Assembly (NCBI GenBank): GCA_017399305.1
Contig: JAFQDK010000008.1
Location: 1-32,138 of the forward strand
Reading direction: 5' to 3'
Length of the DNA: 32,138 bases
From: Clostridia bacterium
GTDB taxonomy: Bacteria; Bacillota; Clostridia; Oscillospirales; CAG-272
The notes below the pieces were generated by a model, which was not told the origin of the DNA, made no database searches, and saw nothing but the letters and a program-made list of their open reading frames with translations. Shown piece after piece: positions 1 to 13,832 of this stretch; position 1 is the stretch's first letter, and each line of letters begins with the position of its first letter. The translations under genes were made by a program, and so were the position numbers.

Positions 1-420
1 CATCATTTCTCTACGTTCGGCGTACCATGTGTGCGTATGTTTGCCACGAAAAACATAATTATAAAAAGTACCTCTTGGAACATCCAATGCATCGCATAAA
101 AGATGAATGCTATACCGCCCTTGTAACAATTCCATAGCCGGCAGTTTCACATCCAAAGTATTGCTTGGCGAGCATCCTGATTCTTTAATTACCTCGATAA
201 TGCTCTCCAACCGTTTCACTCTGCTTTCAAGTTTTCGATAATCTTTGACAGTAAGCTCAATATTTTTGGGTGCCTTTATTTCCCGGCTTTGCGAAATCCA
301 ACCATATATGGTACTGCGTGCAATTCCAGTTTCTGTTACTATGTCTGCTACAGATTCATTGTCAATTAAAAAACGATTAACTATCGCTTGCCGTTCAACT
401 TCACTATGTCTTTTACCCAT
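1..420 (-). CDS. IS3-family transposase, N-terminal part (cut by window edge)
   Basis: The gene reads leftwards from the ATG at 420 and stays open for 140 codons to the window edge, so its 3' end is missing. Residues 21-43 (ESVADIVTETGIARSTIYGW) form a helix-turn-helix like the OrfA part of IS3 transposases. Residues 57-80 are a short leucine-rich coiled coil, as in OrfA multimerisation zippers. Residues 103-124 (YSIHLLCDALDVPRGTFYNY) resemble the start of OrfB (HTH_21). The OrfA-like and OrfB-like parts are in one frame here, without the usual -1 frameshift. The DDE catalytic domain would lie outside the window. An AAAGGAG ribosome site lies about 9 bases upstream, inside a hairpin loop. The family call is by motif and order; the exact IS group is not determined. 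Confidence 0.85.
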   Translation of the reverse strand, partial: MGKRHSEVERQAIVNRFLIDNESVADIVTETGIARSTIYGWISQSREIKAPKNIELTVKDYRKLESRVKRLESIIEVIKESGCSPSNTLDVKLPAMELLQGRYSIHLLCDALDVPRGTFYNYVFRGKHTHTWYAERREMM

Positions 421-454
421 GATACAATCATCTCCTTTAAGAAGATTGTATCAT
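419..454 (-). promoter_or_regulatory. Hairpin over the transposase start codon and ribosome site
   Basis: Bases 419-429 (ATGATACAATC) and 444-454 (GATTGTATCAT) are a perfect 11-bp inverted repeat with a 14-base loop. In the transposase mRNA the AAAGGAG ribosome site falls in the loop and the first two bases of the AUG fall in the stem. Such a structure could limit translation, as known for several insertion sequences. The structure is seen; the regulatory effect is inferred. Confidence 0.6.
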
Positions 455-506
455 AACACCAGAAGTGTTGCCATATTGTCAAAATGGTAGAAAAAACTAC
501 AAATAT

Positions 507-516
507 ATGGTATAAT
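507..516 (+). promoter_or_regulatory. Extended -10 promoter of the Pycsar-like operon
   Basis: TGGTATAAT (508-516) matches the extended -10 consensus TGnTATAAT. No good -35 box lies at 17 bases, which is normal for extended -10 promoters. It sits 33 bases before the first ATG of the operon at 550, whose ribosome site is AAGGAG (536-541). Confidence 0.6.
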
Positions 517-549
517 AAATGCAATAACATTTTTTAAGGAGAACCAACC

Positions 550-1101
550 ATGGGAAATGATCATGAAAAAGTAAAAACCATAGAAATAAAACAGGCCTTT
601 TTATCAAATGCGATATCGGATATTTCTGCATATATTCAATTAGCAGATACTAAAGTGTCAATAATTATGGCTGCAGTTGTTGCTATTTTAGCCGGTATTG
701 CCACTTGCTACGAGCCTATTGAAACTGCTATTTTGGATATTACGCCATGCAGTTGGATTGGTGTACTGTTTATAATATTTGCATTACTATGTACAATAAG
801 TATCATTTTGGTTTTCATGTTCGGTTTATTGACTGTTAGAGCCCATTCAAGTGTTATAAATTACAAGTCGAAGTGGTTCTTACCAAAATCAACAAAGGAA
901 TACTCATTTGATGAGTTTTCGAAAGATGTACAAAAAATGAGCGATGAAGATATTATTAAAAATATGGCTGCAGAACTATACAAGTTAAATGATATAAATC
1001 GCCAGAAAATGAAAACGTTAAAATGGACTTTAGTTTCATTTTCTTCCGTGCTTGTAACCATAGCGACTATTGGGATTCTCTTTCTGGTAAATATAATATG
1101 A
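550..1101 (+). CDS. Pycsar-type transmembrane effector (PycTM/DUF5706-like)
   Basis: A 183-residue membrane protein. An amphipathic N-terminal helix leads into LADTK (31-35), followed directly by a hydrophobic segment (36-54). This 'aDTK + membrane helix' junction is typical of the DUF5706/PycTM family. Further membrane segments are at about 69-96 and 160-181, with a charged cytoplasmic helical stretch (105-158) between them. In known Pycsar systems PycTM is activated by a cyclic pyrimidine nucleotide made by a neighbouring PycC cyclase and damages the membrane, stopping phage growth. Here the neighbours are two nucleotide cyclases 8 bases downstream, which supports the call. Family membership rests on motif, size, topology and context; ligand and toxicity are inferred. 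Confidence 0.75.
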   Translation: MGNDHEKVKTIEIKQAFLSNAISDISAYIQLADTKVSIIMAAVVAILAGIATCYEPIETAILDITPCSWIGVLFIIFALLCTISIILVFMFGLLTVRAHSSVINYKSKWFLPKSTKEYSFDEFSKDVQKMSDEDIIKNMAAELYKLNDINRQKMKTLKWTLVSFSSVLVTIATIGILFLVNII

Positions 1102-1109
1102 GGTATTAA

Positions 1110-1832
1110 ATGAATATTGACGTACAAAAAGTTTACAACAGTACTTGGGAACATTATCAACAAGCAAAAAAGAATGCTTTAGAACGTAGGTTTATGCTTG
1201 AGCATAAGGATACCGCCATATCCGATGTAATCCCTGGATTTGAAGCCGACAAATTAGAGTTTGGCTCATTTGATAAAGAAAACTATGCTGTTCTTTTTGT
1301 GGATATGAGAAATTCCACTTTAAGAGCACAGAATGTTGGTGCAGAAAAAACTTTTCTTACAATGCATGTTTATTTAACCGCCTTACTCGAAGTTGTTAAA
1401 CATCATCACGGAAAAGTTGTTGATATTATGGGCGATGGATTGATGGTGTTTTGGGGCGGTCACAAAGCAAGAGAAGATGAAAATGAAACAAATAAATTTG
1501 CTGTACAAAATGCCGGTCTTTGTGGCCGTGATATGTTAACAATTTGTAAAAACGTTATTAATGTTATCATAGAAAAAGAAAGCCTTGGCACACCGATTGA
1601 TATTGGTGTTGGCATAACTTTTGACAGTGTTATTGTAACAAAAATTGGCATTCCTGGCTCGTACGATGTAAAAGCATTTGGCGATTGCGTTAATACGGCC
1701 TCAAAATATTCAGCTAAAGTTACAAATCAAGTAAAAGTATCTAAAAAGGTAAAAGAATTGTGGCCTAAAGGCCCCAATGGAACAATACACTTCACCTCAA
1801 TAAATGGTGAAGATGCTTACTTGTTATCGTAA
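1110..1832 (+). CDS. Class III nucleotide cyclase, PycC-like (first of two)
   Basis: 240 residues, essentially a single cyclase catalytic domain (about 58-240) after a short helical N-terminus, with no membrane segment. The first metal Asp is D65 in LFVDMRNST and the second is D109 in MGDG. The ribose/transition-state motif is GDCVNTASK (191-199), with Asn195 and Lys199 where most adenylate cyclases have Arg. The residue four before the second metal Asp is Asp105, not the Lys of adenylate or Glu of guanylate cyclases, so purine specificity is not supported. It follows the PycTM-like gene by 8 bases (ribosome site GAGG overlapping its end) and precedes a second cyclase by 14 bases. Role proposed: make a cyclic pyrimidine nucleotide upon phage infection. 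Product identity is unproven. Confidence 0.8.
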   Translation: MNIDVQKVYNSTWEHYQQAKKNALERRFMLEHKDTAISDVIPGFEADKLEFGSFDKENYAVLFVDMRNSTLRAQNVGAEKTFLTMHVYLTALLEVVKHHHGKVVDIMGDGLMVFWGGHKAREDENETNKFAVQNAGLCGRDMLTICKNVINVIIEKESLGTPIDIGVGITFDSVIVTKIGIPGSYDVKAFGDCVNTASKYSAKVTNQVKVSKKVKELWPKGPNGTIHFTSINGEDAYLLS

Positions 1833-1846
1833 TAAAAGGTGACTAC

Positions 1847-3208
1847 ATGAATGAAAGAATAATAAAATCAGAAACAGATTTGCTTTCCACGGCTATCAAA
1901 AGAATATTTGATACTGAAGTATTGGAAAAAGATTTATCAGGAAAACTTCCTAAACTAGAAAGCTTACATGATTCTAATAAGATTTACACAGGCAAAGCAT
2001 CGGTTTTATTTGTAGATATGCGTGGATCAACAAAATTACCTGAACAATTTGATGCAGAACAGCTTGTTAAAATATATAGAAGTTATATTAGAACGATTGT
2101 TCAAGCAGTCCGCTATTCAAATGGAGTTGTTCGCGATTTCATGGGAGATGGTATTTTGGCCGTCTTTATAGATGATGACAATGGTAAATCCGAAGATAAA
2201 GCTGTTTATGCAGCACGCTATATTACCACCGCTATTGATAAATTTCTTAATCCTATTTTAGACGAAAAATTCAACCATCGTATATCCTGTGGAATTGGAA
2301 TACATACCGGAGAAATATCTCTTTCAAAGGTCGGAATGAAAGGTAAGGAGCAAGACGAAGAAACGGAAAGTGAATTTGGAATAGCTTGGATAGGAAACAG
2401 CACAAACCTTGCATGCAAACAATGCGGGGCTGTTGAATGCGGCACCATTTTTATAAGCACTTCAACTTATTCGAAACTGTCAAATATTAACAAGAAAGAT
2501 ATTTGGCGCTCAATTGATATTCAAAAAGGAAGCAGCTTGCTGAAAGGTTATGTTGCAGAACATTACTATTTAGCTCTTGATGAAGAAGTCACGCCTTGTG
2601 TACCAGATGGACAAAGCGCACCTACTGATGTTTTGTTACTAATTCAAAACAAAATAGACGAATTAGCGAAACAATCTGAAATGTTAGGAAAAAAAGAACA
2701 AGATTTAAATGATAGACAAAAAGAGTTGCGCGGCAAAGAAATGGTATTATCTAAAAAAGAAGAACTTTTGAACACAAAATCCGACATGCTAAATCTCTCA
2801 AAGTATACATTTCTATGTGATGTATTAGGAAGCGGACATTGTAAACATGATTATGTTACTGCCATGGGGCAAGAATTTTGGGAAGAAAAGTTAGAAGAAA
2901 CCATTTCTGCCGGAGAAGAAATCGGAAAAACGGAACATGAAGTAAAACAAGATGTGAGTTACGCAATGGTTAGCATATATGAAGATTTAGAATTGTATGA
3001 TAAAGCTTATGACTTTCTAGTTGAGCAAGCAACTGGCTGCAGTTGGTTACTACTATCTGTGGTAAAGAAAATTGTAACCAAAATAGGGTATTGTGATGCA
3101 CTAAAAGACGCACTATATTCTAGATTATCTAAAGGCGACCTTCCTTATAATAAACAAAAAGAGTTCGAAGAAATTAAAAATTGGCTCGTTTTTGAATTTG
3201 AAAAATAA
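1847..3208 (+). CDS. Class III nucleotide cyclase with C-terminal coiled coil (second of two)
   Basis: 453 residues. The catalytic domain (about 50-245) has metal residues D57 (FVDMRGST) and D101 (MGDG), GIGIHTGE (149-156), and WIGNSTNLACK (181-191) with Asn187 and Lys191. As in its neighbour, the purine-selecting position carries Asp (D97). A charged insertion (about 164-177) precedes the WIGN motif. Residues about 262-320 are a heptad-rich, Lys/Glu-rich coiled coil, followed by a helical domain (about 320-453) that I do not recognise. Ribosome site AAAAGGTGA is at 1834-1842. It may sense infection and signal through its own product, or pair with the first cyclase as a heterodimer. Both retain full metal sites, so each could also work alone. 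Confidence 0.78.
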   Translation: MNERIIKSETDLLSTAIKRIFDTEVLEKDLSGKLPKLESLHDSNKIYTGKASVLFVDMRGSTKLPEQFDAEQLVKIYRSYIRTIVQAVRYSNGVVRDFMGDGILAVFIDDDNGKSEDKAVYAARYITTAIDKFLNPILDEKFNHRISCGIGIHTGEISLSKVGMKGKEQDEETESEFGIAWIGNSTNLACKQCGAVECGTIFISTSTYSKLSNINKKDIWRSIDIQKGSSLLKGYVAEHYYLALDEEVTPCVPDGQSAPTDVLLLIQNKIDELAKQSEMLGKKEQDLNDRQKELRGKEMVLSKKEELLNTKSDMLNLSKYTFLCDVLGSGHCKHDYVTAMGQEFWEEKLEETISAGEEIGKTEHEVKQDVSYAMVSIYEDLELYDKAYDFLVEQATGCSWLLLSVVKKIVTKIGYCDALKDALYSRLSKGDLPYNKQKEFEEIKNWLVFEFEK

Positions 3209-3264
3209 AGCAATTCGATATTAAATCTTTTTCTTTTTTCACCCTCAAAAAAACGATTGCCCTA

Positions 3265-3370
3265 TTTGCACCCCCTCCCCTCTTTTGAGCCGTAAATTTT
3301 GCACCCCCTTTGAGCAAAAAATATGCAATTTGCACCCCCTCCCCTCAAAAAAGGGGCGATTTGCACCCCC
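3265..3370. repeat. Four spaced TTTGCACCCCC direct repeats
   Basis: Copies of the 11-mer begin at 3265, 3298, 3329 and 3360, spaced 33, 31 and 31 bases. The first and third copies extend to TTTGCACCCCCTCCCCTC. The in-between sequences are short (about 20 bases), unlike each other and purine-rich. Function unknown; possibly iterated protein-binding sites. Confidence 0.75.
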
Positions 3371-3403
3371 CTATTTTTTCTATCAATTTATGCATTCTCA
3401 CAC

Positions 3404-3441
3404 AGAACGAAAAGCACCCATATGGGTGCTTTTTTCGTTCT
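3404..3441. terminator. Terminator-like hairpin downstream of the cassette
   Basis: AGAACGAAAAGCACCC (3404-3419) pairs with GGGTGC...CGTTCT (3424-3441) around ATAT, with a T-run in the right arm. It is near-symmetric, so it could act on both strands. It is the first strong hairpin after the second cyclase, about 195 bases downstream. Confidence 0.55.
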
Positions 3442-3457
3442 CTTTTGCTGTGGTAAT

Positions 3458-3528
3458 GATTTGTAACCGCATTGTATCCCGAAGGGAGACATCAGGGCTC
3501 GCATAGCAAGACCTTGGGGTTACAAATC
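3458..3528. repeat. 11-bp inverted repeat enclosing a small hairpin
   Basis: GATTTGTAACC (3458-3468) and GGTTACAAATC (3518-3528) are perfect inverse copies 49 bases apart. Inside is a small CCCGAAGGG hairpin (about 3478-3486). The right arm continues into CCCGCCCCCGCAACCA, which resembles a tRNA acceptor end with CCA. No complete tRNA fold can be made. Confidence 0.55.
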
Positions 3529-3549
3529 CCGCCCCCGCAACCAGAATGA

Positions 3550-3577
3550 AAAAGAACATCTGTACGGATGTTCTTTT
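3550..3577. terminator. Terminator-like hairpin
   Basis: AAAAGAACATC (3550-3560) pairs perfectly with GATGTTCTTTT (3567-3577) around TGTACG. The right arm ends in T-rich sequence. It follows directly on the tRNA-like 3' end. Confidence 0.6.
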
Positions 3578-3584
3578 CGTTTTG

Positions 3585-3622
3585 CAATAAAACCGTTCTC
3601 AAAACTGAGAACGGTTTTATTG
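3585..3622. terminator. Strong bidirectional hairpin
   Basis: A perfect 16-bp stem (3585-3600 with 3607-3622) has a six-base AAAACT loop and A/T-rich outer ends, so either strand would give a U-rich tail. It probably insulates the plus-strand cassette from the minus-strand surface-protein gene. Confidence 0.7.
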
Positions 3623-3657
3623 TTTATAAACATTTCATCAACCAAAAAGAGGATCTC

Positions 3658-3694
3658 AAAGGCACCCAAACATTAAGGTGCCTTTGATGTTTTT
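3658..3694 (-). terminator. Terminator of the giant surface-protein gene
   Basis: AAAGGCACC (3658-3666) pairs with GGTGCCTTT (3677-3685), starting 13 bases beyond the stop codon at 3699. On the minus strand a CTCTTTTT run follows shortly; the plus strand also has a T-run (3690-3694), so it may work both ways. Confidence 0.7.
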
Positions 3695-3698
3695 CGAG

Positions 3699-6600
3699 TT
3701 ATTCGATTCCCTCGCAAAATCTCTGCATAAGTGTTGCAATTTCTGCTCTGGTTGCAGTATCTTTGGGATTGAGTGTGTTTGCGCTCTTACCCTTGATAAG
3801 ACCTGAGCCAACTGCATACTGAATCGCCTCTACTGCATATTCAGAAATGTTATCAAAATCGGTATAAGAGTTGATATCTGCTTTTGTAGAAATGTCATAT
3901 CCCTTATACTGCATGTAACGATAAAGCATTGTTGCCATCTGCTCGCGGGTAATTTCATCGTTTGAGCCATACTCAAAGCTACTATAGCCGTTAACTATCT
4001 TTTCAGCCGTTGCCCAACGTACTGCCTCTGCATACCATGCATCCTGCGGCACATCTTCAAAGGTCATCAGATAGTTGACAACAGGGCTGCCTTCCATACG
4101 CCAGAGTATAGTAACAAGCTGTGCACGGGTTACTTTACTGTCTGGTCCAAACATTGTGTCGCCCATGCCGACCATAAGGCCGTTTTCAAGTGCATAGTGC
4201 ACTCCATCGTGATACCATGCGGTATAAACAAGATCAGAGAATGCAGCCATCGGGCAAGTTTCCTCAGTACATCCAACCTCTTCAAAGATAGCCTCAACAC
4301 GGTAAGCTCTTGTAATTTCAAGAGTGTACTCGGTCTTAGCACCAACACTCACACCGTCAACAAGGATTTCCTTAAGAACATATCCTTCGTTAGCAGTCGT
4401 CTTGAACGTAACCTTTTCGCCCTTTTCGTATTTCTGCTCTCCCTCGGGAGTGATCCTACCTCCTACTGTTGCAATAATTGTAACTTTGTAAGTGTCAGAA
4501 GATGCGGAGGGACCGCCACTTAATCCGCCACCATACGAAGGAGTATAAGTTTTTTTATAGTAGCCTACTGCAAACGGTGAAAAGCTGTTAACTGTAAATT
4601 CAATTCCGCTATCTGTCTTTACCGGTGTAATGGTTTCGGTATCTCCAATGTTATGACCGTCCATATCACTTGTAAACATATGAATTACAGTAAAGTTATA
4701 GGTTTTATCCACCTTATCTGCAATATCCTCATAAGGAATACAAACCTTTATGCCGCCTGCAGGATAATGCTCTGCAGTTGCCTCAAGCCATGTTTCGCCG
4801 CCGTCGGTGGTGTACTTGAGAACTATATCAAATACGGTAGTATTCTTATAGCTCTTATCAACCTTTGTAACCTCAGTGCGAAGTGCCTTTTCAAGTTCAT
4901 CAAGCTTTGTATACTTTCCGGTAAGGCTTTCGGGAACCTCCAAAAGTTCGCCAAGAACTACCTGATACATCAAAGCCTCTGCTGTAAATGTAAGTTCGTT
5001 TACATCGCTTACGGTAATGGTGTAGCTACCATCGCCGTTGTGAGCAACAGTGATGTCATCACTTTCAGCATCGCCGAAAATGTCAAACTCATTTACAATA
5101 AGCTTTTTAAAGTGATGCTCCTCTTCGGGGGTTACTGTGAAGGTAATGTCGCCACCATCACGGATTTCGGTAGCGGGTGCTGTATCATCGGGAGTGCGTA
5201 CTACATCGGTAATTGTGTAGCCGCCGTCCGATACAGGAATGGTATATCCCTTATACTCTGTGAATGTAAGCACTACGTCTGTCTTTTCGGTAAGTTTTTC
5301 GATAGTGAGTACATTTGAAAGATTGTCAACAGTATTGCCGTTTACAGTCCATGATGCAACCATGTCTGCGTTATTCTCGCCATTCATCGCGGGAGATGCG
5401 GTGAATACAACTGTGCTGTTACCAACTACACGAACAGGCTCTGTAGATGTGGGATAAATCTCGACACCGCCTACACTTACGCTTGCGGTAGACACATTAC
5501 CTGTTTCACATACTACGGTAAAGGTTACGTCGTAGCGAATTGCTTCCTTGAAAGCTGCGCTTACTTCAATATCCTTCTTGATATCGGTTATTGTAAGCTC
5601 TGCTCCGCTTTCGTTGTCAAGCACTCCGTCAACAGTCCATGCATCAAACTGATAGTAAGTGTCGGGAAGTGCGGTAACTGTAACGCTACCGTTTCTTGAA
5701 ACGGTGATTTCCTCCTCACTTACCGAGCCGTTTTCACCCGATGTTACGGTAACAGTATAGGTGGGACGAGAAATGATTTCAACGCTGACGGTAACATCAC
5801 CTGTAACTGTAGTTGTGTAGGTGAGGGCTGCATCGGAAGTGCCGGTCATTTCGTAACCGTCGGGAGTTTCGCCGTTAACTGTCCACTTACTTACCATGTT
5901 TGTGCCTGCAGGAGTTACTGTAATAACAAGCTCTGCATCATGGTCAACGATATCTCCACTCTTTACCTTTTCGCCGTTTGCAGTAACACGGATAGTACCA
6001 TTTTCGCCAACAGTTTCAAAAGCTACGGTGTAGCCGTCGGGCTCAAATACCGCCTCAATGGTGGTATCACCGGTGACAGTAAGAGTAAGGGTTTCGGTAG
6101 TTTCATCATGCTTCTTGCCGTTTACCTTCCAAGAACCAAACTTGTAGCCGTCAAGTGCGGTTGCGGTAATGGTAACCTCGTCGCCCTCTGCTACATAGGT
6201 TCCGCTTGCGGTTTCACTTGCAAGTGTACCGCCGGTAGTATCGGTATAAGTTACGGTAAAGCTGTTGCGCTCAAGCATCGCTTCAACAGTGAATGTATCT
6301 ACGGGTGTGTCAAGCGCTGCTCCGTTTTCAACAACCCATGTAAATGTGCTGCCGCTAACGCCCTGGCTTACGCCGTTTACAAGCCAATCACAAACGCCAT
6401 AGCCGATTTCGGGACTTGCGGTAAAGGTAAGACTTGTGCCGCCACGTGCCATACCCTCATCGTTGAGAGTAGCCACGCTGATGCTGCCATTTTCAATCTC
6501 GGTTTCTATAGTGTAAAGTATCTCACGGAACTGTACAGTAATTGCAGTTTCATCGTTGCCGTTCGATACATAGGTGTACTCGGTCATACCCTCGGTACCT

Positions 6601-9600
6601 TCTACGAGAGTGCCGTTTGTATACCAACCTGCAATCTCATAACCTGTAGCCTCGGTTGCTGTGAGGTTGAGTTCAACGCCATCCTCAAGTACAAGACCGT
6701 TTGCATTTTCGTATACGTCAACGTTTGCAGCAGTTGCAGCAGAAATGTAGCCGCCTGTGCTATCTGCATCGGTGGGATCAAATGTAATGCCGCTGCCAAT
6801 CTTTACAAAGCGGACTGTAATTGTTACGTCGCCCTGTACGTTTGCAAGAAGCTCTGTAGGAACAGCAGTTCCCTTGCCTTCATTTCCGCCGATATTCCAT
6901 GTGTAGGTCTTAACGCGGTATCCTTCATCAGGAGTTGCGATAATTGTAATATCACTGTCACGGTAGAAGCTGCCGCCATTTGCAAGGTCCCCTGTGTAGC
7001 CGTCAAGCTCTTTACGTGTAACACTTGCAGAAATTGTGCCGTGTGCGCCGCCCTCGTCAATTTCCTCTGTAGAAATAGCTATTTCATACTGAGGAATGGC
7101 CTTTGAGCTAACGCCGATTACAACGTTTGCGGTAATATTTCCTGCCACTGTGTAAACCGTAACGTCGTTTTCCTCAACATTTTCATTTTCGTGAGCCACA
7201 CCTGTACCGCCAAGTGTCCAGTTATCGGTTTCATAGCCAATCTCGGGAGCCGCGGTAAAAGCAATATCGCCACTGTACTTTTCAACGTGGTCGCCGCTTG
7301 TGAGTGTAGTTTCGCCCTGCGCTGCAGTAACGGTAATGTTACTGTCACCTGCGAATGTTACAACAGGCTTTTCTGCGTAAGCCACCTCAATTTCGGTGTC
7401 TTCGGTGATGCTTTCAATATCAAAGGTCATCTCGCCGCCTGTGTAATCGGTTTCGTTATCTGTGTAGATAGCTTCGCCGTCAACGTAAACTGCACTTACG
7501 TAATAGTTTTCATCGGGAGTTGCGGTAACTGTGAGCTGGCTGTCGAGGTCAACATGCTCTGCATCACCCTCTGCAATGTTCACATCGGTATCGGTAGTGT
7601 CAACATTTGTGCCAATAGCTGTTACTGTACCGTTGTCTGTTTCATTCACAGTAACAACAGGCTTTTCTGCGATAACAACGTCAACCTCAAGGTTTGCGTT
7701 GAGCGCCGTAAGAGTTGCATTCTTAAGAGTGCCGTCTACGGTAACTGTATCGCTCCACTCTACTACATAATAGTCGGAATTAAGTGTGAGTTCAAAATCA
7801 ACGGGGATATATGCACCGTATGTGCCGCCGCTTGCAAGCGCTGCACCGTTGCCGTTTGCAGTGAGCTTTGCAATACCATCGTCGGCAACCTCTTCACCGC
7901 CGAGAAGTACAGCATAGCTGAGAGTGTAGCTCTGTGCATTGGTAACGATTGCACGTACGTATGTATTTTCGCTGATATTGTAAAGTGTATAGCCACCCTT
8001 GCCGCCCGAACCTCTTACGGTTGTATATGTTACGCCGTCGGTAGAGGTCTGCCATTCCTTAACTGTGTTATTGGTTTCGTTAAGGTTTGCGGTAAAGGTT
8101 ATAGAAGTGTTCTTTGCGATGTCGGCAAGCGAAATGTCCTCGCCGCTTTCCGCATCGGTTGCGGAAATTGTAGCAAGCTCTGCCGCGGGTACGCCGCTTT
8201 CGCTGTAAACCGAGGTGGTAACGCTGTATTTTTCAGTGCTTTCGATGAAGTATACAACAACGGTGTGATTCTCATCAATATTTTCGATGCTGAGGACCTC
8301 ACCTGCGTACTTATCGCCGCTTTCCCATGTGTAAATATCGCCGTTTACTACCCAACTGTCAATTACGTAGCCGTCAAGCGCGGTTGCGGTGAAGACAAGG
8401 TCAACGCCCTTTGCAACCGAGGTGCCGCTTACAAGAGAAGTGTCGTTTCCGTCATCGACAACTGCCGCAATGCTACCGCCTACGTTGCCGTTTACACTGT
8501 AGGTAACTACGTTTGATGCGGATGCAAATGCAACCTCAACCTCTAAAGCACCGTCACTTATCTGATCGCCGCTCTCTGATGCATCAAAACGGTCAATAAC
8601 AAGTGCATTGCCGTCAAAACGGAACCAATCGGGATGAGCGGCACTGTCTACAAAATACTCTGCGCCGTTGATTATCCACTTGTCAACTGCATAACCCGCA
8701 TCGGGCTCAGCATTAAAGGTGAGCTTTGTGCCGCTTGTCTGGCTGCTACCCGAAGCCATAAGGAAGAGATTATCGCCAGAACGTCCGACAACAGTACCGT
8801 TTTCACCGCTTGCAAAGTATACGGGTGCACTGCTCGGCTTAATGGTAAAGCCTGCGCTATTAAGTGTTACCTGGAAATTGCCCTTGAATTCATCCACTGC
8901 AGCACCTGTCTTGTATCCGAGAGATACTGTAAAGATGCCGGATGCAGAATGGCTTGCAAAGTACGGACAGTTTACATTGAATATTGTCTTGAGATATCCG
9001 TCTGTGTGTCCGCCATACGTACTTACAAGTGTTACGTCGTCTGCACTCATAGGAGTAGAATCCCACGTGGGAGTAATTGTAACAACAAGACGGGTAACGT
9101 CAAGCGCTACTGCCGCAACAAGTGCGTTTGCATCTATCTTGTTGCCCCTGTATACCTTAACCGTATACGCACCTGCCTTTGAGGGCGTGTAGGTGAAAAT
9201 ATCGACTTCACTTTCAGCCTTTCCGGGAGCAGTAATTGTATATGTGAAGGTTTCGCCAATCTGTGCAGTGTAATCTGCCCACTCGTTTGTGCCTGTAACA
9301 CGGCTCTGGAGTGCAAAGCCGAAGGTGTTACCGAAGGGCATTGTACCTGCAAGTGTTTTACCGTTATCGGTGAGAAGAAGTCTGTACTCTGTGGTATTGT
9401 CAGCAGTAGGTGTGCCGAGTGCATCATAATACTTTGCCCCACTTACAGAGCCAAGGTATTTTGTATTGCCGCCAACCACGATCTCAAGTTTGTAGAGGTT
9501 GGAGGCTGGCGCATGCCACTCTGCTGTAGCCTTGCCGCTTGCATTTGCAACTGCCTTAAGCTCGTCAACCGCACCGGAAACAGTGTTTATCATGCGGAAT

Positions 9601-12600
9601 GTAACGTTTGCATTTGAAAGTGCTGTGCCTGTGTTATCAGTTACAGTTGCGGTAAGCGAAATGCCGCTTCCCTGCTTGGGAGTGTATACGGGAACAGAAA
9701 CAGTTTCGATATTCTCAACAGTAATTATAGAAAGTGTTGCACTGTCGAAGCTATAGTCTGCATCATTCAATACATACTTGTGAACTTCGCTTTCGGTAAA
9801 GGGAGTTACTGTATAGAATGCGGGAGTGGGAGCATCCCCCTCGGTTGCGGGAGTGTAAACAACGTCGTAGTACCACATCTCCTCAACGTCGGTATAGTCC
9901 TCCTCGTCCACTACAGTATAGGTTTCACCCTTACCGAGAACTACTTCGGTTTCGCCTTTGACGTATACTTCGTAAATCTCGTCTGTCGAAACGCCGGTAA
10001 CCTTTTCGCCGATTGCGCCGCCCTCGCCATAAGCATACACCTCACCGTCTACCATCCAGTAATAGGTGATATCGGTAAGTCCTTCAAGACGGGTGTCAAC
10101 AGTGATAACAGCCTCCTCGCCCTCTTCAGGTTCAGGTGCGGTAATCGGAGTTTTTGTAGTACCTGTAACAGCCGCTACAAGATAGTATGTAGAACCGTTT
10201 GCATCGGCAGTAATACGCAAATCGCTGTCAAACCCTGCAGGTGCTTCGGAAATGCCGCTATATACCTTTTCAAACGCCTCTTTAATCTCGCCGTCAACAG
10301 TGAAATCACTGCCGCTTTCGGTGAGTGCATAGTACGCACCGCTTTCACTGTCATAGCCGAAATAAGGAGCGCCGATAGTGGTGTTTTCGCCTACGGTCAC
10401 AGGAGTGCCGTAAACGATAAGCTCAGTGCCGTTATAATCGGTAGTAAGATTTTTGTTGGTAGTAACGTGTGTATCGGTAGTGCCGCTTTGTACAAGGTAA
10501 TCAGCCTTGCCGGTATAAGGCTCGGCAAGCGTGCCGTAGCCGTCTGTGTAGCCGCTAACGGATAGCTCTACCTCAGAAGACGCCTTGCCAATGTGAAGCT
10601 TTGCAACATCACTGTAATATGTGATAAGCGAGCCTGCATAAAGTGCATTTATCTCACAACGGTAGAGAGTACCGTCCATCTCGGCGGTAACGTTTTGAAC
10701 TGTGAGAGATTTGCCTGTCGCCTTGTCAACATTTACCCATGACGAGCCGCTTTCACGCTTCTGCCACTGATAGTCAACTGTAGTGTACTTGTCGCCGGGG
10801 AGAGTAACGTCTACGTTAAAGGTTGCGCTTGCGCCAACTCTTGTGTGAACGTCATACGCACCGTCAATAAGAATAGGTGCAGCCCCCTCAGGCGCAGTTG
10901 CAAACGAAAGTGCTTCGCTGTTTACAGATTCGCCGCCGATACCGACAGAACCTGTAGGCGCAGTGTATGAACGTACTACTACGGTGTAGGTGTTATCGGG
11001 GAGAAGATTTGTAATCTCGCAGGTTGTTTCGGTACCGTCAACAGATGCAACGTGAATGTACTTATCATTCTGTGCAAAATACTGATAAATACGGTATTCC
11101 TCTGCGGGACGCGAGCCGTGATTCCAGGAAATCTTCGCACTTGTGGTGGTCACTTCCTCAACGCCGAGGTCCTTTGGAGGAGAAGGAGGTGCAACGATGT
11201 CACGGATAATGTATCCGAGAACAGGGATTTCGGTGCCGTTGATGGTGGTGTTCCAATGAGCGAACTGCCACTGGAAGTCATAGCCGTCTACCTGAATACC
11301 GCTTACAGTACCCGCCTTGGAAATCTCGGTGGTGTTAACGGTGCTCTCGGAGGTAGTGTGCGCATAGCCTGCACCGCCGCCGACCTTTGCGCCGAATACC
11401 ATGCCGTATGCGGTAAAGGAGGTGTTAAGCTCGTACTCATACTCAGAGCTTGTAGAAGTACCGTTAGTAAAGCTCTGGGTAATTGTGCCCGTGCCGTTAT
11501 ACTGTGTAGTAAGATTATCCTTTGTAGCTACGTTTTCAAGACCGTCCTTGGAGGAGCGGTAAGAGAAAGGATTTCCGGGTTCGCCGAGCATCCCCTCGGG
11601 AATCAGATCAAGACCGTACTGTGCAGCCGCATCATTGTATTCCTCAACCGAGATCATGCTGGTAGAAAGCTCGCCCTCTTTAGCAAGCACCATGGTATTA
11701 TCCGTACCGCGAACCTCGTATTCGTATACGATTACAGGACGGCGGTATACAATAACTGCATTTTCGCCGCTATCGTTTGCATAGTTTACCTCAAAAGTCT
11801 CATACTGTTCCTCGGATGTTGACCATGTAAAGTTATTTTCAATAGTAGCCTCAAAGCCTGCGCCGCATACAAAGCCTGCGCAAATATCGTCTACCGACCA
11901 CTCAAAGCCTGCAACTACGTTTGTCTGGAGAGTGTTGCTTGTGCTTGAACCAACACCTGCGGTATCGCTCTTACCGTAGGAGGTTTCACTGTTGTTGATA
12001 CTGTCGGGAATTTCCTCAAAATAAGGAGTTGCCTCGAGGATCGCAAGCACTTCAGGCTCGGTATACGTACGTGAAACGTCCTTGATTCTTACAACAGTGG
12101 AGTCGCTGGAGTCGAGGTCAGGTGCACAAAGTGTGATAAAAGCATCTGCATCGTCATAGGTCAGCCAACCGTCATCATAGCTGTCCCAGCCCTCGGTAGG
12201 TTCGCTGAATTCGCCACTGTCGCAGGTATATGTATACATGCACGAGAAATAATCGTTGACAGCCTTCTGCTTTTGCATTGTCGCAAAGACAAGCTGCTCT
12301 CTGCCGTCAGGGTCGTTTGCAAAGTTACCTGCGGTTACGTCGATAATAAGTCCGTTTGTGATAATGTGAGCGCCGATGCCGTCATCGTCATCATCAAAAT
12401 AGCCTCTGTGATAAAGCTCTTTAATCTGATTGTTTTCAATTTTATATACAACGCCGCCTGCAAAAATAGCATCTGCATGGCCAGGGCCCCAAGGAGAGAA
12501 CACCTGTACGGGAACAAGCGCCTCTACGCTGTCATCATAAAAGCCGCCGTAAACAAATTCCTTGGTATTTACAGTTCCGAGCGATGAATGGCTGTAGTTA

Positions 12601-13832
12601 CCGACAGCAGTTCCGCCAAAAGCATAAGCCTTGGTACAGGTTACCTGATTAAAGTTGATCGTTTCACCGTCAAGTCCGATGCCGTTGCCGCCGTCACTGT
12701 CAACCCAGCCTGCGGAAATAATTTCGGGGTAATCAGCGCCGCCGCTCGTTGCGGTAACATTACCAACAGAGGAGGATGCAAAACGAAGGCGTCCGCTGCT
12801 TGATGCACTCTGGCCCGCACCGCTTTTATGGAGTGCCGCCTTGAATGTCTGGTTAAAGCGAGCCTCAGTGCTATCTCCGTTCGGAAATTCGGGGATGAAG
12901 TCGTAGATAAAGAGCTGAGAGCCAACCATTCCGTTGCCGTCAACGCCTTTGCCTATATTGTCATAGGTATCGTGCATACCTGCGGTAATGATAACCTCGT
13001 CAATATTATCGTTGTCTACGTCCTCTGCAAGAACCTGAACAGCAGGAGTGTTGCGGAGCACACGCGTGTTCTTGGAACGGGTATTTGTAAGGTTGTCATT
13101 GCCGAGAAGATCGAACACATGTGTGCCAAGAACATCGCGTACCCAGCTTATCTGACCGTTTTCAACCTTATATTCCGCAATTGTAGGAGATGCATCCTCC
13201 ATTTGTGGGATATATGCAATAATAGTGTCAACACCGTCGCCATCAAAGTCGCCTGCCGCAACCGATACAAAGCCGGTTGTTGCATATGCAGAAACAGCGT
13301 CGAGGTTGTCGATGCGGTCGCCCTTTGCAAGATCGTATGTATTGGTAACACGGTCGCCGTTTTTGTCGGTAACGAAAAGTTCAAGCGTCGAGCCGCCGTA
13401 CCAGTACGCAACAGTTGCCACATACTCCTTGCTGCCTGTACCGTAGAGGTCAATAGGCGATGTGTCCATCATAGTAAAGCCTCTGTCATTGCCCTCGTTC
13501 TTGCCGCCAATGCGCTCACCGTCACGCACTTTACCCATGGTACCGTCATAGTCATATGAACGGAAATATCTGCCGTTCTCATGCCCTTCGACATAGTACA
13601 ACTCATTTGCCGTAAAGAGTGGGAACCATTCTTCAGTTCCGTAAGGGTTGTTTTTCTTGTAATTTGCCACTTCATCGGCATTAAGGTCACCCTCAATTAT
13701 AATGCCGAATGCATCACGGTTTATAGTAGGTGTATTTTCTTCTGCCGCCGCAATGGGAACTACGGGAACAAAGGAAAACAGCATAGCCATTACCAAAATC
13801 CATGACAGTGTCTGTTTGAAAGTCTTTTTCAT
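3699..13832 (-). CDS. Giant exported SLH-anchored multi-repeat surface protein
   Basis: 3377 residues. A signal peptide (1-30; KK..., hydrophobic core, PIAAA) leads to a region of about 120-560 with FG-GAP/VCBS-like, calcium-binding-type loops (DFDGDGVD, DVDNDNIDE). Residues about 630-870 are an unassigned beta-rich segment. Then come fibronectin III (about 885-975, PPSPPKDLGVEEVTTTSAKI), an Ig-like domain (about 985-1070), a bacterial Ig domain (about 1385-1470), and a long run of InlB-type B-repeats (about 1665-3190, pattern Y.V....NG.V......GY....W..NG). Three SLH domains close the protein (about 3196-3375, each with TR.Q/E..T...R). SLH domains bind secondary cell-wall polymer, so the protein is displayed on the surface. 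Likely adhesin or ligand-binding protein. ATG is supported by AAGGAG at 13840-13845. The TetR gene lies 30 bases upstream on the same strand. Confidence 0.88.
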   Translation of the reverse strand: MKKTFKQTLSWILVMAMLFSFVPVVPIAAAEENTPTINRDAFGIIIEGDLNADEVANYKKNNPYGTEEWFPLFTANELYYVEGHENGRYFRSYDYDGTMGKVRDGERIGGKNEGNDRGFTMMDTSPIDLYGTGSKEYVATVAYWYGGSTLELFVTDKNGDRVTNTYDLAKGDRIDNLDAVSAYATTGFVSVAAGDFDGDGVDTIIAYIPQMEDASPTIAEYKVENGQISWVRDVLGTHVFDLLGNDNLTNTRSKNTRVLRNTPAVQVLAEDVDNDNIDEVIITAGMHDTYDNIGKGVDGNGMVGSQLFIYDFIPEFPNGDSTEARFNQTFKAALHKSGAGQSASSSGRLRFASSSVGNVTATSGGADYPEIISAGWVDSDGGNGIGLDGETINFNQVTCTKAYAFGGTAVGNYSHSSLGTVNTKEFVYGGFYDDSVEALVPVQVFSPWGPGHADAIFAGGVVYKIENNQIKELYHRGYFDDDDDGIGAHIITNGLIIDVTAGNFANDPDGREQLVFATMQKQKAVNDYFSCMYTYTCDSGEFSEPTEGWDSYDDGWLTYDDADAFITLCAPDLDSSDSTVVRIKDVSRTYTEPEVLAILEATPYFEEIPDSINNSETSYGKSDTAGVGSSTSNTLQTNVVAGFEWSVDDICAGFVCGAGFEATIENNFTWSTSEEQYETFEVNYANDSGENAVIVYRRPVIVYEYEVRGTDNTMVLAKEGELSTSMISVEEYNDAAAQYGLDLIPEGMLGEPGNPFSYRSSKDGLENVATKDNLTTQYNGTGTITQSFTNGTSTSSEYEYELNTSFTAYGMVFGAKVGGGAGYAHTTSESTVNTTEISKAGTVSGIQVDGYDFQWQFAHWNTTINGTEIPVLGYIIRDIVAPPSPPKDLGVEEVTTTSAKISWNHGSRPAEEYRIYQYFAQNDKYIHVASVDGTETTCEITNLLPDNTYTVVVRSYTAPTGSVGIGGESVNSEALSFATAPEGAAPILIDGAYDVHTRVGASATFNVDVTLPGDKYTTVDYQWQKRESGSSWVNVDKATGKSLTVQNVTAEMDGTLYRCEINALYAGSLITYYSDVAKLHIGKASSEVELSVSGYTDGYGTLAEPYTGKADYLVQSGTTDTHVTTNKNLTTDYNGTELIVYGTPVTVGENTTIGAPYFGYDSESGAYYALTESGSDFTVDGEIKEAFEKVYSGISEAPAGFDSDLRITADANGSTYYLVAAVTGTTKTPITAPEPEEGEEAVITVDTRLEGLTDITYYWMVDGEVYAYGEGGAIGEKVTGVSTDEIYEVYVKGETEVVLGKGETYTVVDEEDYTDVEEMWYYDVVYTPATEGDAPTPAFYTVTPFTESEVHKYVLNDADYSFDSATLSIITVENIETVSVPVYTPKQGSGISLTATVTDNTGTALSNANVTFRMINTVSGAVDELKAVANASGKATAEWHAPASNLYKLEIVVGGNTKYLGSVSGAKYYDALGTPTADNTTEYRLLLTDNGKTLAGTMPFGNTFGFALQSRVTGTNEWADYTAQIGETFTYTITAPGKAESEVDIFTYTPSKAGAYTVKVYRGNKIDANALVAAVALDVTRLVVTITPTWDSTPMSADDVTLVSTYGGHTDGYLKTIFNVNCPYFASHSASGIFTVSLGYKTGAAVDEFKGNFQVTLNSAGFTIKPSSAPVYFASGENGTVVGRSGDNLFLMASGSSQTSGTKLTFNAEPDAGYAVDKWIINGAEYFVDSAAHPDWFRFDGNALVIDRFDASESGDQISDGALEVEVAFASASNVVTYSVNGNVGGSIAAVVDDGNDTSLVSGTSVAKGVDLVFTATALDGYVIDSWVVNGDIYTWESGDKYAGEVLSIENIDENHTVVVYFIESTEKYSVTTSVYSESGVPAAELATISATDAESGEDISLADIAKNTSITFTANLNETNNTVKEWQTSTDGVTYTTVRGSGGKGGYTLYNISENTYVRAIVTNAQSYTLSYAVLLGGEEVADDGIAKLTANGNGAALASGGTYGAYIPVDFELTLNSDYYVVEWSDTVTVDGTLKNATLTALNANLEVDVVIAEKPVVTVNETDNGTVTAIGTNVDTTDTDVNIAEGDAEHVDLDSQLTVTATPDENYYVSAVYVDGEAIYTDNETDYTGGEMTFDIESITEDTEIEVAYAEKPVVTFAGDSNITVTAAQGETTLTSGDHVEKYSGDIAFTAAPEIGYETDNWTLGGTGVAHENENVEENDVTVYTVAGNITANVVIGVSSKAIPQYEIAISTEEIDEGGAHGTISASVTRKELDGYTGDLANGGSFYRDSDITIIATPDEGYRVKTYTWNIGGNEGKGTAVPTELLANVQGDVTITVRFVKIGSGITFDPTDADSTGGYISAATAANVDVYENANGLVLEDGVELNLTATEATGYEIAGWYTNGTLVEGTEGMTEYTYVSNGNDETAITVQFREILYTIETEIENGSISVATLNDEGMARGGTSLTFTASPEIGYGVCDWLVNGVSQGVSGSTFTWVVENGAALDTPVDTFTVEAMLERNSFTVTYTDTTGGTLASETASGTYVAEGDEVTITATALDGYKFGSWKVNGKKHDETTETLTLTVTGDTTIEAVFEPDGYTVAFETVGENGTIRVTANGEKVKSGDIVDHDAELVITVTPAGTNMVSKWTVNGETPDGYEMTGTSDAALTYTTTVTGDVTVSVEIISRPTYTVTVTSGENGSVSEEEITVSRNGSVTVTALPDTYYQFDAWTVDGVLDNESGAELTITDIKKDIEVSAAFKEAIRYDVTFTVVCETGNVSTASVSVGGVEIYPTSTEPVRVVGNSTVVFTASPAMNGENNADMVASWTVNGNTVDNLSNVLTIEKLTEKTDVVLTFTEYKGYTIPVSDGGYTITDVVRTPDDTAPATEIRDGGDITFTVTPEEEHHFKKLIVNEFDIFGDAESDDITVAHNGDGSYTITVSDVNELTFTAEALMYQVVLGELLEVPESLTGKYTKLDELEKALRTEVTKVDKSYKNTTVFDIVLKYTTDGGETWLEATAEHYPAGGIKVCIPYEDIADKVDKTYNFTVIHMFTSDMDGHNIGDTETITPVKTDSGIEFTVNSFSPFAVGYYKKTYTPSYGGGLSGGPSASSDTYKVTIIATVGGRITPEGEQKYEKGEKVTFKTTANEGYVLKEILVDGVSVGAKTEYTLEITRAYRVEAIFEEVGCTEETCPMAAFSDLVYTAWYHDGVHYALENGLMVGMGDTMFGPDSKVTRAQLVTILWRMEGSPVVNYLMTFEDVPQDAWYAEAVRWATAEKIVNGYSSFEYGSNDEITREQMATMLYRYMQYKGYDISTKADINSYTDFDNISEYAVEAIQYAVGSGLIKGKSANTLNPKDTATRAEIATLMQRFCEGIE

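What the first reader, a model, noticed from the sequence alone, without database searches (positions are those of the whole stretch)
508..3208. Pycsar-like operon with two different class III cyclases and one membrane effector
The sequence shows a PycTM/DUF5706-like gene followed by two non-identical cyclases, both with complete metal Asp pairs, in one tight operon. Described Pycsar systems use one cyclase and one effector. Two cyclases suggest two signals, a heterodimeric enzyme, or two infection sensors feeding one effector. The A/T-rich composition and transposase neighbour support a mobile defence island.
Basis: partly seen in the sequence, partly recalled or inferred. Interest (0 to 1): 0.85.

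Follow-up and report, generated by a model that had tools for sequence, protein, structure and literature searches.

The report
Two-cyclase Pycsar-type phage-defence operon
This bacterium carries a small gene cassette that looks like a known suicide-type virus defence, but with two different signal-making enzymes feeding one membrane protein instead of one enzyme, and the same and similar double arrangements turn up in other bacteria, plasmids and viruses.

Summary
Window 550-3208 encodes a PycTM-like membrane protein, a 240-aa class III cyclase (type S) and a 453-aa class III cyclase with an extra C-terminal region (type L), 8 and 14 nt apart. Both cyclases keep both metal Asp. The order TM-S-L recurs in Flavonifractor sp. 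An112 and a Lachnospiraceae MAG (58-69% protein identity per gene, synonymous sites saturated, DNA similarity confined to the cassette). Other multi-cyclase clusters pair other types: L + clade-C-like (Ruminococcus phage, two viral contigs), S + a third type (Desulfosporosinus plasmid), clade-D-like + clade-C-like (two Curtobacterium plasmids), three cyclases (Arthrobacter plasmid). Partners are 17-26% identical in the eight pairs measured, so not recent duplicates. Each of the five main types also occurs alone beside one PycTM-like protein, and no active-site half is lost in the window pair; this favours two self-sufficient enzymes over an obligate heterodimer, without proving it. Most likely: a Pycsar-type abortive-infection cassette with two inputs into one effector. 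Substrates and phage protection are untested. The open papers searched listed no multi-cyclase Pycsar; the founding paper was not held. New variant of a known kind.

The parts
488..541 (+). promoter-like site (TAGAAA-17-TATAAT with TG, 488-516) and AAGGAG (536-541) upstream of the first gene
   Evidence: 14 promoter-like sites in 380-3700 against a shuffle mean of 12.8, so not significant by itself; sequence read
550..1101 (+). PycTM-like membrane effector, 183 aa, three hydrophobic stretches (about 29-57, 59-103, 159-183)
   Evidence: PADLOC PycTM 1.6e-16; Pfam PF18967 1.5e-4, below gathering; hydropathy; 61-64% identical proteins in L044/L045
1110..1832 (+). cyclase S (short class III nucleotide cyclase), 240 aa, metal Asp D65 and D109, N195, K199, K188
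   Evidence: 68-69% identical in L044/L045, 41-42% in a Desulfosporosinus plasmid and in viral contig L056
1847..3208 (+). cyclase L (long class III nucleotide cyclase), 453 aa, metal Asp D57 and D101, N187, K191; residues about 265-453 are a coiled-coil-like stretch plus a region without a Pfam family above cutoff or a solved relative
   Evidence: 58-63% identical in L044/L045
3409..3434 (+). intrinsic-terminator-like hairpin about 200 nt after the last gene
   Evidence: 5 found in 380-3700 against a shuffle mean of 2.4, sd 1.6
1..420 (-). IS3 OrfA-like transposase frame cut by the contig end; neighbour, not part of the system

Best explanation
A mobile Pycsar-type abortive-infection cassette with two separate cyclases and one membrane effector. 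Infection switches on cyclase S, cyclase L or both; each makes a cyclic mononucleotide as its own homodimer; the product opens or assembles the PycTM protein, the membrane fails and the cell dies before phage is released. The two cyclases give the effector two inputs: they differ in a residue near the base (K188 in S against A/V at the matching place in L) and in their regulatory parts (S is a bare domain; L carries a coiled-coil-like stretch and a C-terminal region that is my candidate sensor). SHOWN: gene content, complete metal Asp in both cyclases, conservation of the triplet, recurrence of other cyclase pairs, each type occurring alone. INFERRED: catalysis, cyclic pyrimidine as product, homodimers, two triggers, membrane killing, phage defence.
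For: Family matches. TM-S-L order in three genomes, with DNA similarity limited to window 570-3096 (L044) and 563-2472 plus 2802-3036 (L045) of the 1-3800 compared. Synonymous differences saturated (pS 0.71-0.79) while nonsynonymous stay at 0.15-0.27 in all three genes, so all three are under purifying selection. Both Asp of both cyclases conserved in 3 of 3. Each type stands alone with one PycTM-like protein elsewhere: S in L056, L in L061/L062 and, more loosely, L065, clade C in 8 loci, GEC type in 5, clade D in L078; rechecked by BLAST of every reading frame of 60 aa or more kept per locus. L changes partner: S in three loci, clade C in L057-L059. No complementary loss of Asp or of the transition-state Asn in the window pair.
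Against: No activity, substrate or phage-protection data. Published pyrimidine-specificity residues (BcPycC Y50/D94/R97; AnPycC F60/K104/F109; EaPycC F100/R142/Q144) are not matched beyond the shared Phe, so the product could be another cyclic nucleotide. S fits no PADLOC PycC model well (67 bits at best, against over 300 for clade C and D proteins). Apyc1 cleaves all cNMPs equally (PMC9117128, passages), so two signals would not escape that counter-defence. Joint conservation of S and L would also fit a complex. The effector tree does not resolve the branching of the three triplets (77/29, another order than the cyclases), so co-inheritance of all three genes is not shown by trees. L065 is only loosely of type L (58/92). 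PF18967 is below its gathering score. No structure could be predicted.
Confidence: 0.5

Rival explanations
1. S and L form one heterodimeric cyclase, a split counterpart of clade A PycC with two fused cyclase domains or of mammalian C1/C2 adenylyl cyclase. One signal, made at a composite site, drives the effector.
For: 8- and 14-nt spacing and joint conservation of the pair; class III active sites form between two protomers; clade A precedent (PMC11224242). In the Arthrobacter plasmid L079 one of two tandem cyclases reads Ser at the transition-state Asn place while its neighbour keeps Asn (by eye, sequences printed).
Against: All five main types occur alone with one PycTM-like protein; L pairs with S in some loci and with clade C in others; neither half-site is lost in the window pair. 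Changes at the place four after the Asn in clade C occur in single-cyclase loci too.
Confidence: 0.22
2. Opposed signals, as in Panoptes or Clover: one cyclase makes a resting (inhibitory or decoy) cyclic nucleotide that holds the effector closed, and the system fires when that pool is destroyed by a phage nuclease or outcompeted by the other cyclase's product.
For: Precedents for inhibitory nucleotide signals: Panoptes (PMC12657218, passages), whose authors speculate about yet-unseen Panoptes-like guards of Pycsar signals, and Clover (PMC12265719, abstract and opening). Two dissimilar cyclases with one effector is the minimum layout; a base-pocket residue differs between S and L.
Against: No direct evidence; each type also stands alone with one PycTM-like protein, where it would have to be the activator if those loci are ordinary Pycsar.
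Confidence: 0.13
3. Two Pycsar systems collided and one effector was lost; the extra cyclase is a passenger.
For: Most clusters read have one cyclase (20 of 35); L030 has a whole clade-C-like cyclase beside a decayed clade-D-like one; L031 holds a 326-nt fossil of the L gene.
Against: Three related triplets with all genes under purifying selection at saturated synonymous divergence, and repeated different pairings.
Confidence: 0.08
4. Not phage defence: a cyclic-nucleotide-gated membrane stress or signalling module.
For: No functional data; PF18967 match below gathering score; Guanylate_cyc match of L barely above its cutoff.
Against: PADLOC PycTM and PycC matches; relatives on phages, plasmids and what looks like a conjugative element; patchy presence: apart from the query's own or centre genome, no S-type relative judged close among 295, 391 and 299 genomes.
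Confidence: 0.07

Closest known systems
Pycsar (PycC + PycTM), as described in PMC11224242
   Same: class III cyclase next to a PycTM-family membrane effector; metal Asp pair
   Different: two cyclase genes of distant clades for one effector; S fits no PADLOC PycC model well; L has a long C-terminal extension; published base-selection residues not matched beyond one Phe
Pycsar clade A PycC (PaPycC), two cyclase domains in one protein
   Same: two cyclase domains per system
   Different: here two genes; weak scores to PDLC02366, the model I take for clade A (23.6 bits for S, 22.7 for L, against 67 and 121 for PDLC02367)
Panoptes (OptS + OptE)
   Same: nucleotide synthase next to an effector; a model for a guard or decoy signal
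   Different: its signal is a cyclic oligonucleotide; here two class III cyclases. Resemblance in logic only and untested
CBASS with a 2TM effector
   Same: P0001 also scores against PADLOC '2TM Effector' models (best 1.3e-12); that these are CBASS models is recalled
   Different: no CD-NTase matched; the enzymes are class III cyclases; the PycTM model scores higher (1.6e-16)

Membership tests
Pycsar | class III nucleotide cyclase of the PycC group | tested here: met
   Pfam Guanylate_cyc above cutoff for both; PADLOC PycC 3e-19 (S) and 9.9e-36 (L). S is a poor fit to every PycC model.
Pycsar | both metal-binding Asp present | tested here: met
   D65/D109 and D57/D101, conserved in L044 and L045
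Pycsar | adjacent PycTM or PycTIR effector | tested here: met
   PADLOC PycTM 1.6e-16; Pfam PF18967 1.5e-4 but 22.6 bits against a gathering score of 27.2
Pycsar | makes cCMP or cUMP | not testable with these tools
   needs purified protein
Pycsar | published base-selection residues of clades B, D or E | tested here: inconclusive
   only the Phe two before the first Asp agrees; around the second Asp, -4 is D, -2 is M, +1 is G in both. These positions differ between clades, and my alignment carries the mapping
Pycsar | N-terminal helix called a hallmark of PycC in PMC11224242 | not tested
   structure prediction was never accepted
Pycsar | protects against phage | not testable with these tools
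   needs bench work
Pycsar in its described layout (one cyclase, one receptor) | a single cyclase gene | tested here: not met
   two cyclase genes, conserved in L044 and L045; hence filed as a variant, not as the described layout
Pycsar clade A | two cyclase domains in one polypeptide | tested here: not met
   two separate genes; weak scores to PDLC02366 (that this model is clade A is inferred from its length)
CBASS | CD-NTase | tested here: not met
   no nucleotidyltransferase match among the four window proteins scanned
Panoptes | OptS synthase with OptE effector | not tested
   compared only in logic, from passages of PMC12657218

The most novel reading that the evidence does not exclude
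Multi-cyclase Pycsar is a modular two-signal immune design: dissimilar cyclases with different base pockets make two different cyclic mononucleotides that one PycTM effector integrates, one activating and one restraining it. That would be the Pycsar-side counterpart of Panoptes and Clover, guarding the cyclic-mononucleotide pool against phage nucleases.
Probability: 0.12. Interest if true: 0.9.

Novelty: new variant of a known kind. Interest (0 to 1): 0.6.

Why it matters
Pycsar is described as a two-gene circuit: one cyclase, one receptor. How PycC senses phage is, as far as I know, unsettled. Natural operons in which two unrelated cyclases share one effector give a direct test: which phage activates which cyclase, whether two nucleotides are made, and whether one restrains the other. 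The partner exchange seen here (L with S or with clade C; clade C with L or with D) suggests that cyclases are interchangeable input modules. The C-terminal region of L is a concrete candidate sensor.

Tried and rejected
Recent tandem duplication of one cyclase: rejected; partners are 17-26% identical in the 8 pairs measured and sit in separate groups. The two tandem cyclases of the Arthrobacter plasmid L079 are 43% identical and may be an old duplication; L077 and L079 were in neither measure.

Assembly or chance artefact: rejected by three related triplets in different contexts.

tRNA or Rfam element as integration site: none found in the window. Tandem repeats at 3150-3700: none called.

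C-terminal region of L: no Pfam family above cutoff (only a weak coiled-coil-type match) and no solved relative (best E 0.11).

Viral scans (7 of 8 used): searches found nothing; 68, 78, 92 and 132 found L056, L058, L059, L065 and L081 (L063, L064, L080 and L082 are L058 and L059 again). Rarity: S type, 12 of 295 family genomes matched, the window's own included; the others are distant cyclases plus the L fossil (L006). 6 of 391 at 1e-15, the other five with open frames of about 440-620 aa, judged not S type by length and score., 1 of 299, its own centre. L type: 2 of 300, one the centre, 1 of 309, the centre.

Which cyclase the effector 'belongs' to: the PycTM tree puts P0001 on the side of the L and clade C effectors (95/90), on a long branch; too weak to build on.

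First filed wrongly, then corrected: I had taken L036 for a CBASS locus; one search shows a cyclase-like frame in it (E 2e-6), so it is now listed as unclear.
Full report
OBSERVATION. Three + strand genes lie 8 and 14 nt apart at 550-1101, 1110-1832 and 1847-3208. P0001 matches PADLOC PycTM (1.6e-16) and, below gathering score, Pfam PF18967 (22.6 bits against 27.2). P0002 (type S) and P0003 (type L) match the class III cyclase domain above cutoff (L barely) and PADLOC PycC at 3e-19 and 9.9e-36. Both keep both metal Asp. They are 23% identical over 212 aligned positions. They are the only two matches to P0002 in the window's own genome, held as 63.7% complete. The operon has 34.3% GC against 45.8% for 3700-32138. 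The left neighbour is an IS3 OrfA-like frame cut by the contig end.

RECURRENCE OF THE SAME TRIPLET. The one scan of the genome-contig collection (84,980 species by its description) returned two relatives of S: Flavonifractor sp. An112 (L044) and an uncultured Lachnospiraceae MAG (L045). Both have TM-S-L in the same order; protein identity to the window is 64/69/63% and 61/68/58%. The scan used only two peptide patterns, so more may exist. Of window 1-3800, DNA similarity covers 570-3096 (L044) and 563-2472 plus 2802-3036 (L045), apart from one short stray match. Neighbours differ: restriction-modification-like genes in L044, relaxase-like and nuclease-like genes in L045 (by eye). Pairwise pS is 0.71-0.79 and pN 0.15-0.27 for all three genes: all three are under purifying selection. 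The S and L subtrees both join L044 with L045 (88/63 and 98/88); the effector tree does not resolve this (77/29 for another order). A 326-nt fossil of the L gene, 79% identical DNA, lies in another genome of the window's family.

OTHER CYCLASE PAIRS. L + clade-C-like: Ruminococcus phage NatCom_28274 (L057, order L-TM-C); viral contig L058 (C-L-TM); viral contig L059 (C-L, where the contig ends, so no effector is seen). S + GEC type: Desulfosporosinus acidiphilus plasmid pDESACI.01 (L037, S-TM-GEC; the same locus came as L018). D + C: Curtobacterium plasmids P20 (L069) and D40 (L077, where the middle gene is annotated 'Pycsar system effector family protein'). Three cyclases: Arthrobacter plasmid NtRootC7-1 (L079), a D-type facing two tandem cyclases and a gene that looks like a membrane protein by eye but matched none of my PycTM set. 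Clade letters are my reading of PADLOC models by length and score and of the tree. 'GEC type' is my label for cyclases with GEC where S has GDC.

FROM LISTINGS ONLY, NOT READ. A Paraclostridium sordellii plasmid has an L-like match at 58079-59332 and a C-like match at 56587-57306 on one strand. All 4 Mycobacterium marinum records with a D-like match also have a C-like match; in NZ_HG917973.1 the two lie 49 nt apart and convergent.

COUNT. Clusters whose DNA I read and that hold a PycC-like class III cyclase or a frame like one: 35, rechecked by BLAST of their reading frames. Ten hold two or more whole cyclases: window, L044, L045, L037, L057, L058, L059, L069, L077, L079. Twenty hold one cyclase beside a PycTM-like gene: L032, L034, L035 (effector frame broken by stops), L038-L041, L043, L056, L061 (L062 is the same place), L065, L066, L068, L070-L074, L078, L081; for several only 3 kb on each side was seen. 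Five are unclear: L033 (cyclase frame apparently broken), L030 (second cyclase decayed), L036 (weak cyclase-like frame, 2e-6), L067 and L075 (no effector found). Left out: L031 (fossil), L042 (an unrelated kind of cyclase), and the cyclases (L003-L005, L007-L013, looked at only by BLAST with the window proteins; L046-L051, neighbourhoods not looked at). By type, share in multi-cyclase clusters: L 6 of 8, S 4 of 5, C 5 of 15, D 3 of 5, GEC 1 of 6. This is not a random sample: the queries were S, L, C and D proteins. I read 6 of 7 plasmid records with an S-like match, 9 of 32 with a C-like match, 4 of 13 with a D-like match and 2 of 5 with an L-like match. In the one effector-led sample (14 of 398 genomes matched) two of the eight best-scoring loci hold two whole cyclases, the window being one of the two.

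NOT DUPLICATES. Partners are 17-26% identical in the 8 pairs measured. In a tree of 37 cyclases they fall into separate groups: window S with L044/L045 S 100/99, window L with L044/L045 L 100/100, clade C 99/99, GEC type 100/99, L069's D-type with L035 100/99. S and GEC types share a wider group (95/93). I infer at least four pairings: S+L, L+C, S+GEC, D+C.

MECHANISM. Class III active sites lie between two protomers: one gives the Asp pair, the other the transition-state and base-contact residues (established knowledge). In an obligate heterodimer one would often expect complementary loss. None is seen: S has D65, D109, N195, K199; L has D57, D101, N187, K191 (L044's S has His for K199). Each of the five main types also stands alone with one PycTM-like protein, and L changes partner. 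I therefore favour two self-sufficient cyclases acting on one effector (0.5) over a heterodimer (0.22), opposed signals (0.13), passenger (0.08) and a role outside defence (0.07). The position that aligns with the adenine-contact Asp of mammalian C2 (recalled; alignment mine) is Lys in the five S-type and six GEC proteins and Ala or Val in the three triplet L proteins, so the base pockets probably differ. In the pairs of L057-L059, L069 and L037 this one residue does not differ in that way, though other pocket places do. Published pyrimidine-selection residues are not matched beyond one Phe, so the products are unknown. Apyc1 cleaves all cNMPs equally (PMC9117128, passages), so escape from Apyc1 is a poor reason for two signals; two triggers, or escape from a nucleotide-specific sponge, are better ones (inference).

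THE LONG CYCLASE. Residues about 265-453 of L are coiled-coil-like and then a region conserved in L044 and L045 (58 and 51% over that part) and recognisable at 24% in L057. It has no Pfam family above cutoff and no solved relative. It is my best candidate for a sensor or scaffold (inference). Structure prediction was asked for and never accepted.

KNOWN OR NEW. Searches of the open-paper library for Pycsar with cyclase and effector (30 of 41 listed), 'two cyclases' (24, none), PycTM with PycC (25, 3), 'second cyclase' (106, none), 'heterodimer' (107, 9), uridylate cyclase with cUMP, phage and operon (108, none) and PycC/Pycsar/operon (139, 20 of 75 listed) showed no paper on multi-cyclase Pycsar, judged from titles, abstract starts and what I opened: PMC11224242 (parts 1-2 of 7 and passages), PMC12657218, PMC11719660 and PMC9117128 (passages), PMC12265719 (abstract and opening). 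The founding paper (Cell 2021, recalled) is not held, so it may mention such loci. Clade A PycC has two cyclase domains in one chain. I file this as a new variant of Pycsar, not as a member of the described one-cyclase layout and not as a new kind of system.

Recounting changed two statements: S-like plasmid records read are 6 of 7, and L036 is unclear rather than CBASS. Neither changes the odds.

Noticed in passing
   Followed up: no
   Followed up: partly
   Followed up: no
L040 (Salmonella enterica subsp. houtenae contig), 3420-6151: PycTM-like gene, one GEC-type cyclase, a TIR-like small protein (by eye) and a caspase-like protein (annotated ICE-like protease p20) in a row.
   Followed up: no
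L079 (Arthrobacter sp. NtRootC7 plasmid), 3013-6114: Three cyclases; of the two tandem ones (43% identical) one reads Ser where the other has the transition-state Asn, the only hint seen of a C1/C2-like division of labour.
   Followed up: partly
L056 (IMGVR_UViG_651053002_000003), 5923-7332: Viral contig with a single S-type cyclase plus PycTM between small phage genes and a terminase-like gene: a virus-borne Pycsar.
   Followed up: partly
window 3699-13832, - strand: 3377-aa secreted-looking protein ending in what look like S-layer-homology-type repeats (by eye), of higher GC than the cassette.
   Followed up: no
window 3240-3375: Several near-copies of a TTTGCACCCCC-containing stretch right after the operon; Tandem Repeats Finder does not call an array.
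   Followed up: partly
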